Positions 40,003 through 44,293 of a DNA stretch of 64,000 nucleotides are shown piece by piece (position 1 is the stretch's first letter; each line of letters starts with the position of its first letter). Origin of the DNA: Elusimicrobiaceae bacterium (lineage in GTDB: Bacteria > Elusimicrobiota > Elusimicrobia > Elusimicrobiales > Elusimicrobiaceae). Both the position numbers and the translations under genes were made by a program. The DNA lies in the NCBI GenBank assembly GCA_017961295.1, contig JAGCXL010000023.1:1-64000 (forward strand), written 5' to 3'. Below the pieces are notes generated by a model that saw nothing but the letters and a program-made list of their open reading frames with translations, was not told the DNA's origin and did no database searches.

Positions 40003-40470
40003 ATGAAAGCAGTAGTTTTCCCGGGAAGTTTTGATCCGGTTACAAACGGACATTTGGATTTAATTCGGCGTGCGTGTGCCATTTTTGGAGAAGTGGTTGT
40101 GTTGGTGTTACCCAATGCGGCCAAAAAAACACGGTTTAGTTTGCAAGAGCGGATAGATTTTTTGAAAGAATCTTTAGCGCAGGATAAAAATGTGCGGGTA
40201 GAGGGCAGCCAAGGCCTTTTGGTAGATTATATGAAGAAAAACGGGTATACAACCGTAGTGCGCGGAATTAGAAATGCGCACGATTGGAACCCGGAACGGA
40301 CGAACGTTTACTTTAATAAGCAGCTATACCCGCAGTTGGAAACGGTGTTTTTACCCGCGGGGGAAGAATACCAGTTTATTAGCTCTACCGCTATCAAAGA
40401 AGCTGCCGCCGGCGGAGCGGATGTTTCCCCCTGGGTTCCGGCGTGTGTGGCAAAAGAGCTAAAAAGCTAG
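40003..40470 (+). CDS. coaD: Phosphopantetheine adenylyltransferase
   Basis: The 155-residue nucleotidyltransferase makes dephospho-coenzyme A from 4'-phosphopantetheine and ATP. Motifs are PGSFDPVTNGHLDLI at 7-21, YTTVVRGIRNAHDW, and EYQFISSTAIKE at about 121-132. Length is typical. AAAGGAG lies 7 bp before the ATG. A terminator follows. Confidence 0.98.
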   Translation: MKAVVFPGSFDPVTNGHLDLIRRACAIFGEVVVLVLPNAAKKTRFSLQERIDFLKESLAQDKNVRVEGSQGLLVDYMKKNGYTTVVRGIRNAHDWNPERTNVYFNKQLYPQLETVFLPAGEEYQFISSTAIKEAAAGGADVSPWVPACVAKELKS

Positions 40471-40492
40471 AATTTTTAAGAAATTGATTATA

Positions 40493-40525
40493 AAAAAGGA
40501 CCTATATGTAAAATAGGTCCTTTTT
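40493..40525 (+). terminator. coaD terminator
   Basis: AAAAAGGACCTAT (40493-40505) pairs perfectly with ATAGGTCCTTTTT (40513-40525). Confidence 0.9.
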
Positions 40526-40852
40526 CTTTTGCGCAGCAGCTTTAAATTTCATAACATATTAGTGGAGAAGGTTAAATTGTTATGTACCAGTGCAACACCA
40601 CTCAATTTGCGTGTTTGTGCTCCGCCCGGCGAGAAAATTCGCTAACGCCGCGGGTCGGGTTCCTTTTTTGCATTTTCCTTTCTTTATTGTCCACACATTT
40701 TAAAAACAAGCAAACCACAACTTATAGTATATACCTGCAGTGCATTTACCCATTTGATTTATATAGGGCCAAAAGATACTTTAAAATAGGACTTTTGGCC
40801 CTGTTTTTTTGCTATTTAAATTGCGATTATATATATAAGAGAGGAAAATTAT
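40526..40852 (+). other. Gene-free leader region before the 1146-residue gene
   Basis: The 382-bp gap after coaD contains the coaD terminator, then about 170 bp in which I see no gene. An open frame from 40582 has no ribosome site and no sensible protein. A possible -10 box TATAGT lies at 40723-40728. A second terminator-like hairpin is at 40765-40810, then a very AT-rich stretch leading to GAGG (40841-40844) and the ATG at 40853. Confidence 0.5.
40765..40810 (+). terminator. Intrinsic terminator or attenuator upstream of the 1146-residue gene
   Basis: AGGGCCAAAAG (40765-40775) pairs with CTTTTGGCCCT (40792-40802) over a 16-nt loop, followed by GTTTTTTT. It lies 43 bp before the ATG and well past the coaD terminator, so it may terminate a short leader RNA. 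Confidence 0.7.
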
Positions 40853-43800
40853 ATGCGTAAGCTACTTTCGCTTGTGCTGAGCGTAAGTATTTTAGCTAGT
40901 AGTATTACACCGGCTATGGGGCAAGCCCTGGCCGGCCGTAGCGTTGCCAAAGGCGTACGCAAAACGGTTACTTTGGCCGATAAACGGGCGCTTACAAAAC
41001 TTAATCAAAATGTTGCCCGCCGGGTATCGGCTGCGCAAGTGCGTGCTTTGCCCGTGAGCATTTTGCAAACCCGTATTTTACAAGGGAACGTGAAAGGATT
41101 GGCTGCGGATATTTTAAAACGTCCGGTAGCGGTACGTGCCCCGATTCTTCGCAATGAATTTGTTACTCTCTCTTTAATTCCTGGTGCTGTAACGGCGGCT
41201 CAACGGGCACAAGCGGTAAAAGCTTATCAAATTCAATTAAAAAACACGCAGCAAGCTCTTAAAGTTTCACAAATAGATTTGGACTCTTTCTTAACCTATG
41301 CTAAAGAAAATCTGACGGATGAAAACGTATTAGCAGTCCAAGGGGTACTGGCGGATGCTTCTGCCTTGGGACTAGTGGGAACGAAGGAAAATGCCCCGGT
41401 TCTTATTGATTTTTACAAACAAGCACAAGGAACGGTGTTTGAAGATGTGGCGGCACTTATTACCGCACGCGGTTTGTTACGCATGCAGGCGTATGAAGAA
41501 TTGGAAAACTGGCTCAATGAGTTGGAACCCAAAGATATATTGGGGGGGACAATTTCTTATATTGCCCAACGGCAGTTGCCCATAGCTGTGAAGCCCGCCG
41601 ACTTAAATTTGCATCCTACCGCTGTTAATAAAAAACTAGCCGATTTCTTAAAAATCAATTTTGAATCCAACCGTTTGCATGCCGACCCTTCCATGGCAGC
41701 AACCGACCAGTGGGTATCCTTAGAGAGTCCGCGCGTAGTACCGGCTGCCCAGAGGATCGAACAACAAAAAGTTGCCGTGCAGCAAACAGTTAAAACCCCG
41801 GTAAGAGAGGACGTTTCTGCTGGAGTAGTGCAAGAGAAAGCTTCCAAACGGATGAATAATATCCAAAAACTATTAAAACGTGGAGAAGAATTTGATCGCA
41901 AAACTTTCCCGGTGGAGGTTATGGACGTAGCGGGGCAGGCCCAAGAAGTGCCGGTAACCTTTAGCATTGGGGGCAGCTTATCCGCGGAAGGATATGACCA
42001 TGTGGTTTTTCGCGAAGATCCCGGTTTTGAAAACAAATATATCATTGAATTGCACGACCATGGCAAGGAACCGATTAAAATGGGGCATTTCTATATGGCC
42101 CTGTATAATAACGACGTAGGGGCGCTTGTAAAGGCCGCCCAAAAAGCCGGGGTAAAATTGCGCTTAAAATTGGAACATACCGCCAACGTGAACTATGAAA
42201 CGATTACAAAACCGGTCTATGATAAAGAAGGAAATATCCTTCCGTTAGAAGTGAGTGTGCAATTAGGTAAGCCCCTTTGGGCACGGGAATTGAACCAAGC
42301 ATTTGTTCACTGGATGGAAAGCAGTATGGGCCTGACGGTAAATCACTCTCAAAATATTTTAAGAGATGCTAAACTGGTGCTTCGCAATAACGGTGAATTA
42401 TGGATGCAGCTTGAAGGCAGCAAAACCTTGACCCCGCTCCCGCAAGAATATTATGTACGTTTGCCTAAACACCAAGTGCAAAATATAGTCAGCTTATTGC
42501 CTGCGGTAGAAAAAGGACAATCTTTTAACATTATTCTTTCCCCTACTTCCAATCGTGTAAATATGGTGGCGCGCGATGCCTCGCTGACCAACGTCAGCTT
42601 GGGAAAAACAATGGGAAGTGTGGTATATAACTCCTTAGGAGTACAAAAAGAAAGTGCCCAAGCCATGATGTTTGTTATTAACTATGTGATGCCAGGGTTT
42701 GCCTCGCTCATGACCCCGGCTCTTAAGAAATATGGGGAAAAGAATTTGCTGACGCTTTCGTTAGGAATGTCTGTAGCGGCAGGTGTGTTGGCTACCTTGG
42801 GTGGATTTAACGGATTTGTGGAAGGCGTTACGTTGGGACCGGTGCAAAAGGGGTTGTTTATTGGAGCACTGCTCCTAATGAGCGGGGCCAGCATTATTAA
42901 ACAATTAGTTTCTAATATGCTCATCCGCGCTAACCGTGGCGAAGTGGTGCTCACTTCTACCGAAAAGAAAACTGCCCAAGCGATTGTCCAAGAACGTTCT
43001 ACCGTTCAAGGCAGTGCCCTAATTGCAAAACGATTTAAAGAATTTTTTACCAAAAAATCAGAGATGTCTTTGCGGGATTTGGTGCTTTACAATAAAGGTT
43101 TTGTGTATAAAAACGTAGGTACACTTTTATTCTTGGCTTCTCCGTTCTTAATTGAATATGGCACGCTGGGGCTTACCGGAATTGATTTGGGTATTGACTA
43201 CTCGGCCAGCTTCCCACTTTACGCAGGGTATAGTTCCTACGTTATGTGGAAAGTGCTTCGCTCTAAACTGCGTGATGCTTATACCGCCAAAAATTTACTA
43301 CAAAGCCAACAGATGCTTTCCAATATGTTAAAAACCGGTGCCAAAGCATTGGCTGGACAACATGTTACCAAAAACACCATTGACGATGTAGCGCGTTCAT
43401 TTAAAGATTCGTTAGATGCGTTGGCATTCGCGCATATTAAAGTAAATCCTACGCAGCAAAAGAAACAATTCTACCAAGAAGCCAAAGAACACATTTTAGC
43501 GGATTTAGAAAATAGTTTAAAGAAAGGACACCACATGCCGGCTACGCAGGCACATGAATTAGTGGAACAAGTGACGGCTTCCATTAAAGTGCAGGAAAAT
43601 AATTTGGGCAACATGCGCAAAATGTTAAAAGCTCCGGGAGTGGGGGCATTGGCTACGGCTATGACATTAGCCACCGTGCACGAATTTGGAATATCCAATT
43701 CTTTTGCGGGGACAATGGATCATTTAATTCAAGGCGAACTGGCCAACTTTTTAATGGCTACTTCCCTCTACGTGCCGCTGATTATCGGCCGTTTGGGGGG

Positions 43801-44293
43801 AAACTGGATTAGCCGCCGTATCAGCCCGGATACCATGTATTTGCTTTGTTCCGCTTTATCTGCGATCGGTACGGCCGTGATGATAGGGGCCGGTAATAGT
43901 GTTCCCTTGATCATTACAGGGGCGGCCATTGCTAGTTTGGGGGTGGGTAACTTCTTTACCCAAATGTATGACTATATTATGAATAAATATCCCAAACAAA
44001 ACCGTGAGATTTCCTCTATCCTGGCCCTGACCATGGGAGTAGCCGGATTAGGGGCAGTTCCTGCCGGTTGGATTACGGCAGAAAAAATGGGCGCTCCGCT
44101 TGATTTGTGGTACGCTGGAGCAGCTCTTGCGGCTAGCTTGGTCTTAACCCCCGGGATGATGAAAAATTCTTCTATTATCAAAGGGGTTAAACAGGCCGTT
44201 AGCCAACCGTGGAAAAAACTTAAAAACAACGTGAAAAAATGGTTTAATCGCGGGGGGAATGTACCGCCTGTGGCAGAAGTTTCGGCAAATTAA
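40853..44293 (+). CDS. Large exported-domain/MFS-like fusion membrane protein, function unknown
   Basis: The 1146-residue protein starts with a signal-like helix (MRKLLSLVLSVSILASSITPAMG). About 580 residues follow: an alanine/arginine-rich segment, a helical stretch (about 140-240) that could be HEAT-like, and a mixed alpha/beta domain (about 350-590). From about residue 605 there are roughly eleven or twelve membrane helices with a major-facilitator look (VMPGFASLMTPALKK, a long central loop at about 720-755, and a second loop rich in charged helices at about 820-930). The tail is basic. I know of no named family with this order. GAGG is 8 bp before the ATG. An upstream hairpin may attenuate it. 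Confidence 0.75.
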   Translation: MRKLLSLVLSVSILASSITPAMGQALAGRSVAKGVRKTVTLADKRALTKLNQNVARRVSAAQVRALPVSILQTRILQGNVKGLAADILKRPVAVRAPILRNEFVTLSLIPGAVTAAQRAQAVKAYQIQLKNTQQALKVSQIDLDSFLTYAKENLTDENVLAVQGVLADASALGLVGTKENAPVLIDFYKQAQGTVFEDVAALITARGLLRMQAYEELENWLNELEPKDILGGTISYIAQRQLPIAVKPADLNLHPTAVNKKLADFLKINFESNRLHADPSMAATDQWVSLESPRVVPAAQRIEQQKVAVQQTVKTPVREDVSAGVVQEKASKRMNNIQKLLKRGEEFDRKTFPVEVMDVAGQAQEVPVTFSIGGSLSAEGYDHVVFREDPGFENKYIIELHDHGKEPIKMGHFYMALYNNDVGALVKAAQKAGVKLRLKLEHTANVNYETITKPVYDKEGNILPLEVSVQLGKPLWARELNQAFVHWMESSMGLTVNHSQNILRDAKLVLRNNGELWMQLEGSKTLTPLPQEYYVRLPKHQVQNIVSLLPAVEKGQSFNIILSPTSNRVNMVARDASLTNVSLGKTMGSVVYNSLGVQKESAQAMMFVINYVMPGFASLMTPALKKYGEKNLLTLSLGMSVAAGVLATLGGFNGFVEGVTLGPVQKGLFIGALLLMSGASIIKQLVSNMLIRANRGEVVLTSTEKKTAQAIVQERSTVQGSALIAKRFKEFFTKKSEMSLRDLVLYNKGFVYKNVGTLLFLASPFLIEYGTLGLTGIDLGIDYSASFPLYAGYSSYVMWKVLRSKLRDAYTAKNLLQSQQMLSNMLKTGAKALAGQHVTKNTIDDVARSFKDSLDALAFAHIKVNPTQQKKQFYQEAKEHILADLENSLKKGHHMPATQAHELVEQVTASIKVQENNLGNMRKMLKAPGVGALATAMTLATVHEFGISNSFAGTMDHLIQGELANFLMATSLYVPLIIGRLGGNWISRRISPDTMYLLCSALSAIGTAVMIGAGNSVPLIITGAAIASLGVGNFFTQMYDYIMNKYPKQNREISSILALTMGVAGLGAVPAGWITAEKMGAPLDLWYAGAALAASLVLTPGMMKNSSIIKGVKQAVSQPWKKLKNNVKKWFNRGGNVPPVAEVSAN

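What the first reader, a model, noticed from the sequence alone, without database searches (positions are those of the whole stretch)
40853..44293. Unusual fusion: signal-peptide exported domain of 580 residues followed by an MFS-like membrane half
The N-terminus looks secreted, yet the last 540 residues hold about twelve membrane helices with large charged loops between them. MFS permeases with such a big periplasmic N-terminal domain are not a class I know. It could be a transporter with its own capturing domain, or a receptor. An upstream attenuator-type hairpin suggests regulation.
Basis: partly seen in the sequence, partly recalled or inferred. Interest (0 to 1): 0.5.

Follow-up and report, generated by a model that had tools for sequence, protein, structure and literature searches.

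The report
Exported-domain MFS protein lacking helix one
A gut bacterium of the Elusimicrobium group makes a membrane transporter-like protein whose front half appears to be sent out of the cell interior, and the transporter part seems to have given up its first membrane helix to allow this; relatives share the arrangement, but what it carries is unknown.

Summary
Window 40853-44293 (+) encodes a 1146-residue protein: Sec-type signal peptide, exported-type N-terminal region of about 570 residues, then a Major Facilitator Superfamily (MFS) core. Ten loci from public assemblies carry relatives, 49-89% identical. No family model searched covers the full length; Pfam MFS_1 matches only the C-terminal half.

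The N-terminal part is a helical domain plus two tandem copies of one small beta-rich domain. The MFS core has 11 hydrophobic helices; the segment where helix 1 belongs is polar (mean insertion cost 7.5, other helices 1.1-4.4, 28 sequences, one exception) but holds an invariant lysine. Loop charges fit normal MFS orientation from helix 2 on, so without helix 1 the N-terminus is outside, as the signal peptide demands. Against: sister proteins keep a hydrophobic helix 1 behind the same N-domain, and AlphaFold puts the polar segment in the helix-1 slot.

Among 340 genomes of the phylum the module is found in the window's own family (three genera) plus one ordinary-looking MFS elsewhere. I read it as an inner-membrane MFS transporter with its own periplasmic capture or gating domain; location, transport and substrate are inferred, not shown.

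The parts
40853..40924 (+). Signal peptide, residues 1-24
   Evidence: Sequence; similar in 11 of 13 aligned rows, 2 lacking the start; 29 of 34 frames
41030..41782 (+). N-terminal helical domain, about residues 60-310 (N-domain found only in the window's genus)
   Evidence: AF2 pLDDT 56-85 per block over 71-220; second-look Z up to 8.8 to helical repeat proteins, weak for helical repeats; family profile A5
41894..42268 (+). Beta-rich domain A, about residues 348-472
   Evidence: AF2 pLDDT 55-82 per block; tandem copy of domain B by hhalign, probability 95.5, P 1.4e-8
42359..42568 (+). Beta-rich domain B, about residues 503-572, with R536, P538, K539 invariant in 28 sequences
42569..42646 (+). 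Polar remnant of MFS helix 1, residues 573-598, with K585 (GKT motif)
   Evidence: Mean insertion cost 7.5 against 1.1-4.4 for other helices, 28 sequences, L068 an exception; K585 invariant in 28
42647..44164 (+). MFS core, helices 2-12, residues 599-1104
   Evidence: Pfam MFS_1 E 3.1e-8 on 930-1126; 19 of 28 sequences match MFS_1 at E 0.01; Foldseek and VIA matches to MFS structures, Z up to 25.6
43265..43627 (+). Helical insert between helices 6 and 7, about residues 805-925, cytoplasmic by charge
   Evidence: AF2 pLDDT 53-84 per block over 811-920; charges
44165..44293 (+). Positively charged C-terminal tail and stop codon
   Evidence: Net +4.4 on average over 28 sequences
40766..40810 (+). 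Terminator-like hairpin and T run, ending 42 bases before the start codon
   Evidence: Nearly invariant in 9 sequences, window and 8 of 10 loci; one place in the held genome
40582..40860 (+). Possible upstream small ORF overlapping the start of the gene
   Evidence: Open up to the hairpin in the same 9 sequences, with only weak third-position bias; no NCBIfam match

Best explanation
It is an inner-membrane MFS-type transporter that carries its own periplasmic domains. The signal peptide sends the N-terminal ~570 residues (helical domain, then two copies of a beta-rich domain) through Sec into the periplasm. The MFS core then inserts from helix 2 onwards with the usual orientation (helix 2 enters from outside, C-terminus inside). 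MFS helix 1 normally starts in the cytoplasm, which an exported N-terminal domain forbids; here helix 1 has lost its hydrophobicity and survives as a short polar segment carrying an invariant lysine, which I infer sits at the periplasmic mouth of the transport cavity and links the capture domains to the core. Shown by computation: signal peptide, domain layout, MFS relationship, polar helix 1, loop charges, spread within the phylum. Inferred: periplasmic location, capture or gating role, transport, substrate (unknown).
For: ORF and signal peptide. MFS: Pfam MFS_1 3.1e-8 in the C-half, 19 of 28 sequences; of the 50 Foldseek rows listed for the module model 48 have MFS titles (two read only 'protein A') and all 50 VIA rows listed are MFS (family names from my knowledge), best Z 25.6, 359 aligned, rmsd 4.1. 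Helix 1: mean insertion cost 7.5, sd 1.5, in 28 sequences against 1.1-4.4 for the other eleven helices; same measure 1.8-3.5 for helix 1 of 5 ordinary MFS proteins of the same genome. Partial natural control: in three tandem proteins (L043-L045) the second MFS has a hydrophobic helix 1 (2.3-2.4) and MFS_1 matches from profile position 2-4 on, while the first is of the polar type (6.4 and 7.5 for L043 and L044); their 5' ends lie beyond the contigs, so their signal peptides were not seen, and that the linker is cytoplasmic is inferred. Positive-inside: the 6 loops expected inside are net positive, the 5 expected outside net negative. In 17 proteins of 1146-1300 aa no segment between signal peptide and helix 2 costs less than 3.9. 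A similar signal peptide and the N-domain head 7 of 24 paralogues with no other hydrophobic segment. K585 invariant in 28.
Against: A sister group of paralogues (13 aligned, 864-993 aa) has a signal peptide and the N-domain but a hydrophobic helix 1 (mean 3.5) and normal loop charges, so an exported-type N-domain does not always go with a polar helix 1. AF2 packs the polar segment into the helix-1 slot of a 12-helix bundle (the aligned range starts at model residues 54-75, i.e. 559-580, in 48 of 50 VIA rows), though pLDDT there is about 28-42 and AF2 may favour complete MFS folds. The stretch just before the remnant is net positive (+1.4). L068, the most divergent member, has a hydrophobic helix 1 (2.6), although it also has upstream hydrophobic segments. 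Costs of real helices overlap the 3.9-6.5 seen in the N-terminal region (helix 2 mean 4.1, helix 6 mean 4.4), so a span there is not strictly excluded. Longer relatives (L049, L059, L061, L063, L064, L066) have one to three segments at or below 4.5 before the core, so their topology is unclear. No transport, binding or localisation data exist.
Confidence: 0.5

Rival explanations
1. Ordinary 12-helix MFS with the N-terminus inside: the polar segment does span as helix 1, the large N-terminal region is cytoplasmic, and the signal-like helix is either not used or is an anchor.
For: AF2 builds a 12-helix MFS with the polar segment in the helix-1 position; the sister group has a signal peptide, the N-domain and a hydrophobic helix 1 with normal charges.
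Against: Mean insertion cost of 7.5 over 28 sequences against 1.8-3.5 in 5 ordinary MFS; the conserved signal peptide with its cleavage motif; signal peptide and N-domain in 7 of 24 paralogues with no other hydrophobic segment.
Confidence: 0.2
2. Pseudo-transporter: a receptor, chaperone or envelope scaffold that uses an MFS fold as membrane anchor and no longer transports.
For: Polar replacement of a helix that lines the MFS cavity (cavity role recalled); very variable N-terminal parts, in frames of 1146 to 4510 aa; one relative carries a Trypsin_2 domain after two MFS-like units.
Against: Charged and polar residues in or near the core helices are invariant or nearly so in 28 sequences (K585, K753, Y973, R980; E944 nearly), as expected of a working transporter.
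Confidence: 0.25
3. Misassembly or a frame artefact joining two genes.
For: The window's genome is a fragmented draft (38 contigs, 66.65% complete).
Against: 8 of 10 loci from public assemblies carry it as one complete frame of 1147-1300 aa (L038 is cut by the contig end, L040 lacks the start of the frame); 72 of 340 phylum genomes match the module profile.
Confidence: 0.01

Closest known systems
Major Facilitator Superfamily, Pfam MFS_1 (PF07690)
   Same: C-terminal six-helix half matches (E 3.1e-8); loop-charge pattern and predicted fold of MFS
   Different: Polar helix 1, ~570 residues of exported-type domain in front, 120-residue insert between helices 6 and 7; N-half not matched by the profile
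Mycobacterial Rv1410 with lipoprotein LprG (PMC10576003; only the search listing and start of abstract seen)
   Same: An MFS transporter said to act with a periplasmic lipoprotein
   Different: There two separate proteins; here one chain. No sequence or structure comparison made
Eukaryotic MFS with large outside domains (OCT1, URAT1, SV2A)
   Same: Appear among the structural matches of the core
   Different: Their outside domain lies in a loop within the bundle (recalled), not at an exported N-terminus
Sister paralogues of 864-993 aa in the same genus (L069, L093, L106 and others)
   Same: Signal peptide, N-domain, MFS_1 core
   Different: Hydrophobic helix 1 and MFS_1 matches from profile position 6-12 to the end in the three scanned; beta domains A/B were not looked for in them

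Membership tests
Major Facilitator Superfamily | Sequence match to an MFS profile | tested here: met
   MFS_1 E 3.1e-8, 33.3 bits against a cut-off of 33.4 for the whole protein; 34.8-35.1 bits, over the cut-off, for the module alone; C-half only
Major Facilitator Superfamily | MFS fold | tested here: met
   All 50 listed VIA rows are MFS by my knowledge, Z 22.0-25.6; model confidence is low (pLDDT 46.4)
Major Facilitator Superfamily | Twelve hydrophobic membrane helices | tested here: inconclusive
   Eleven; helix 1 polar. Whether the segment spans cannot be tested here
Major Facilitator Superfamily | Both termini in the cytoplasm | tested here: inconclusive
   C-terminus inside by charges; N-terminus has a signal peptide
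Major Facilitator Superfamily | Transport of a solute | not testable with these tools
   No experiment

The most novel reading that the evidence does not exclude
A class of MFS proteins with inverted N-terminal topology: Sec-exported domains were fused in front of the core, and helix 1 was given up so that the chain enters the bundle from the periplasm, leaving an 11-helix N-out transporter whose former helix 1 became a polar gate carrying an invariant lysine.
Probability: 0.4. Interest if true: 0.65.

Novelty: new variant of a known kind. Interest (0 to 1): 0.45.

Why it matters
MFS proteins are among the commonest transporters and are described as N-in, C-in twelve-helix bundles (general knowledge). 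A family that exports its N-terminus and does without a hydrophobic helix 1 would show how that rule can be broken, and would give single-chain examples of a transporter fused to its periplasmic partner. It also marks an unexplained protein family in a poorly studied gut phylum.

Tried and rejected
Full-length matches were sought in Pfam, NCBIfam, PHROGs and the PDB sequences; none covers the protein. AF2 on the full length (11 sequences) gave pLDDT 48.7 and no Foldseek match at E 0.001 or better; the module alone gave pLDDT 46.4 but an MFS-like bundle. A profile comparison of the two MFS halves of the family found no internal repeat (hhalign probability 0.6). Rfam on 40300-41100 gave only hits below the gathering scores. 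The upstream small ORF as a real gene stays undecided: open up to the hairpin in 9 of 9 sequences; pairwise changes by codon position, with L031 left out, 580, 576 and 693. That the hairpin is a genome-wide element was rejected for the held part of the genome: one place. Literature: seven searches, of which I saw only listings and starts of abstracts (one search listed 20 of 78 papers, 15 of 2,694), showed no paper on such a fusion; a paper on the E. minutum genome (Herlemann 2009, recalled) is not held, so earlier mention is not excluded. Outside the phylum only a scan by short peptide patterns was made. In one search at most 3 candidates per genome were scored, so copy numbers there are lower bounds.

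Full report
What is there. The frame 40853-44293 (+) encodes 1146 residues. The window lies in an 897,454-base draft genome of 38 contigs, 66.65% complete. Ten related loci were found in genome contigs; 7 of 10 record titles name Elusimicrobium (1), Elusimicrobiales (5) or Elusimicrobia (1), and 3 read 'uncultured bacterium'. By NCBIfam the window has coaD directly upstream (E 4.3e-49), a dGTPase-like gene before it, a PHP phosphatase-like gene downstream, an SH3-domain gene and secA. In the loci the PHP gene lies downstream in 10 of 10, with one extra 559-aa gene between in 5 of 10; a coaD-like frame directly upstream is listed in 6 of 10, my listing hiding overlapping frames and two loci starting or breaking inside the gene. 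There is no evident functional partner next to it.

Layout. Residues 1-24 are a signal peptide. About 60-310 is a helical domain; AF2 is fairly confident over 71-220 and its closest structures are helical-repeat proteins, Z up to 8.8, which for helical repeats may mean only a common arrangement. Residues 348-472 and 503-572 are two copies of the same small domain: profile comparison gives probability 95.5, P 1.4e-8 over 59 columns. The second copy carries R536, P538 and K539, invariant in 28 diverse sequences including the window. From about 599 to 1104 follow the MFS helices, with a 120-residue helical insert between helices 6 and 7.

MFS identity. Pfam MFS_1 matches residues 930-1126 at E 3.1e-8, 33.3 bits against a cut-off of 33.4, and slightly over the cut-off when the module is given alone. 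Of 28 sequences 19 match MFS_1 at E 0.01 or better. The profile of the family finds no MFS chain in the PDB by sequence. The AF2 model of residues 506-1135 has low confidence (pLDDT 46.4), yet 48 of 50 listed Foldseek rows have MFS titles (two read only 'protein A') and all 50 listed VIA rows are MFS by my knowledge of these families, with Z 22.0-25.6. I take the MFS fold as established and its fine detail as not.

Helix 1. With one measure applied to every helix in 28 sequences, helices 2-12 have mean insertion costs of 1.1-4.4 and the helix-1 segment 7.5 (sd 1.5); one member, L068, is an exception at 2.6. The same measure gives 1.8-3.5 for helix 1 of five ordinary MFS proteins of the same genome; these are five of the seven MFS_1 places, the others being the protein itself and a frame with stops. 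The segment is nevertheless conserved, with K585 invariant in 28. Loop charges are net positive for all six loops expected inside and negative for all five expected outside; the short stretch before the remnant is net positive too (+1.4), which does not help the N-out reading. Helix 2 therefore runs from outside to inside, and whatever precedes it without spanning is outside, in line with the signal peptide. In 17 proteins of 1146-1300 residues no segment between residue 41 and helix 2 costs less than 3.9; real helices can cost as much (helices 2 and 6), so this is support, not proof.

Controls. Three proteins (L043, L044, L045) carry two MFS units in tandem. The first is of the polar-helix-1 type (6.4 and 7.5 for L043 and L044; L045 was not in that table). 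The second has a hydrophobic helix 1 (2.3-2.4) and matches MFS_1 from profile position 2-4 to 344-345, below the cut-off in L045. Their 5' ends are beyond the contigs, so signal peptides were not seen, and the cytoplasmic side of the linker is inferred. Against this, 13 sister proteins of 864-993 aa have a signal peptide and the N-domain yet a hydrophobic helix 1 (mean 3.5) and ordinary loop charges. In them either helix 1 does not span or the N-domain is not outside; I cannot say which. This is the main weakness of the reading. A global profile alignment sets the remnant against the helix 1 of the sister group, but the significant local match lies in the C-half (P 8.3e-6).

Export. Of 24 chosen paralogues with the N-domain, 7 have no hydrophobic segment apart from the N-terminal one, and 17 have MFS-like sets. 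The same head on soluble and membrane proteins argues that it is an export head rather than a membrane helix of the MFS. Of 34 frames matching the module and not cut at the 5' end, 29 start with a signal peptide by my simple criteria and reading.

Spread. The N-domain profile matches 27 of 199 genomes (the window's own and genomes of at least 90% completeness), all in the genus of the window, where 11 further genomes lack it, with one to six copies each. Five of those 11 (G036, G047, G063, G073, G132) do have the module, so module and N-domain part company. Frame lengths vary widely: 1817, 2029 and 4510 aa in members with most of the module, and a 3965-aa relative with two MFS-like units and a Trypsin_2 domain.

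Upstream. A hairpin followed by a T run ends 42 bases before the start codon; its arms are nearly invariant in the 9 sequences aligned and it occurs once in the held genome. Because it hardly varies, covariation cannot test it. A small frame, 40582-40860, is open up to the hairpin in the same 9 but evidence for coding is weak.

Verdict. A real, lineage-specific variant of the MFS with an exported-type front part and a degenerate first helix. Transport is likely by descent but not shown; the capture role is an inference from layout. Novelty is that of a new variant of a known kind.

Noticed in passing
window 40582-40860: Small upstream frame (92 aa) starting MYQCNTTQFACLC; up to the hairpin it is open in 9 of 9 sequences (window and 8 loci), with LPxRxKPQT in 7 of 9.
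   Followed up: partly
window 40766-40810: Near-invariant terminator-like hairpin in the leader, one place in the held genome; possible attenuator.
   Followed up: partly
L075 1766-13660: 3965-aa relative with signal peptide, two MFS-like units and a Trypsin_2 domain near the C-terminus, on a single-contig genome of 1,643,562 bases (which I recall as the size of E. minutum).
   Followed up: partly
L059 96-13625: 4510-aa frame with a beta-domain and MFS module at its C-terminal end.
   Followed up: no
L070, L094, L096, L098, L100, L103, L108: Paralogues with signal peptide and N-domain but no further hydrophobic segment; no Pfam family in the three scanned (L070, L094, L103).
   Followed up: partly
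L072 2113-6864 and 7085-11878: Two tandem ~1590-aa relatives, each with signal peptide and MFS-like C-terminal part.
   Followed up: no
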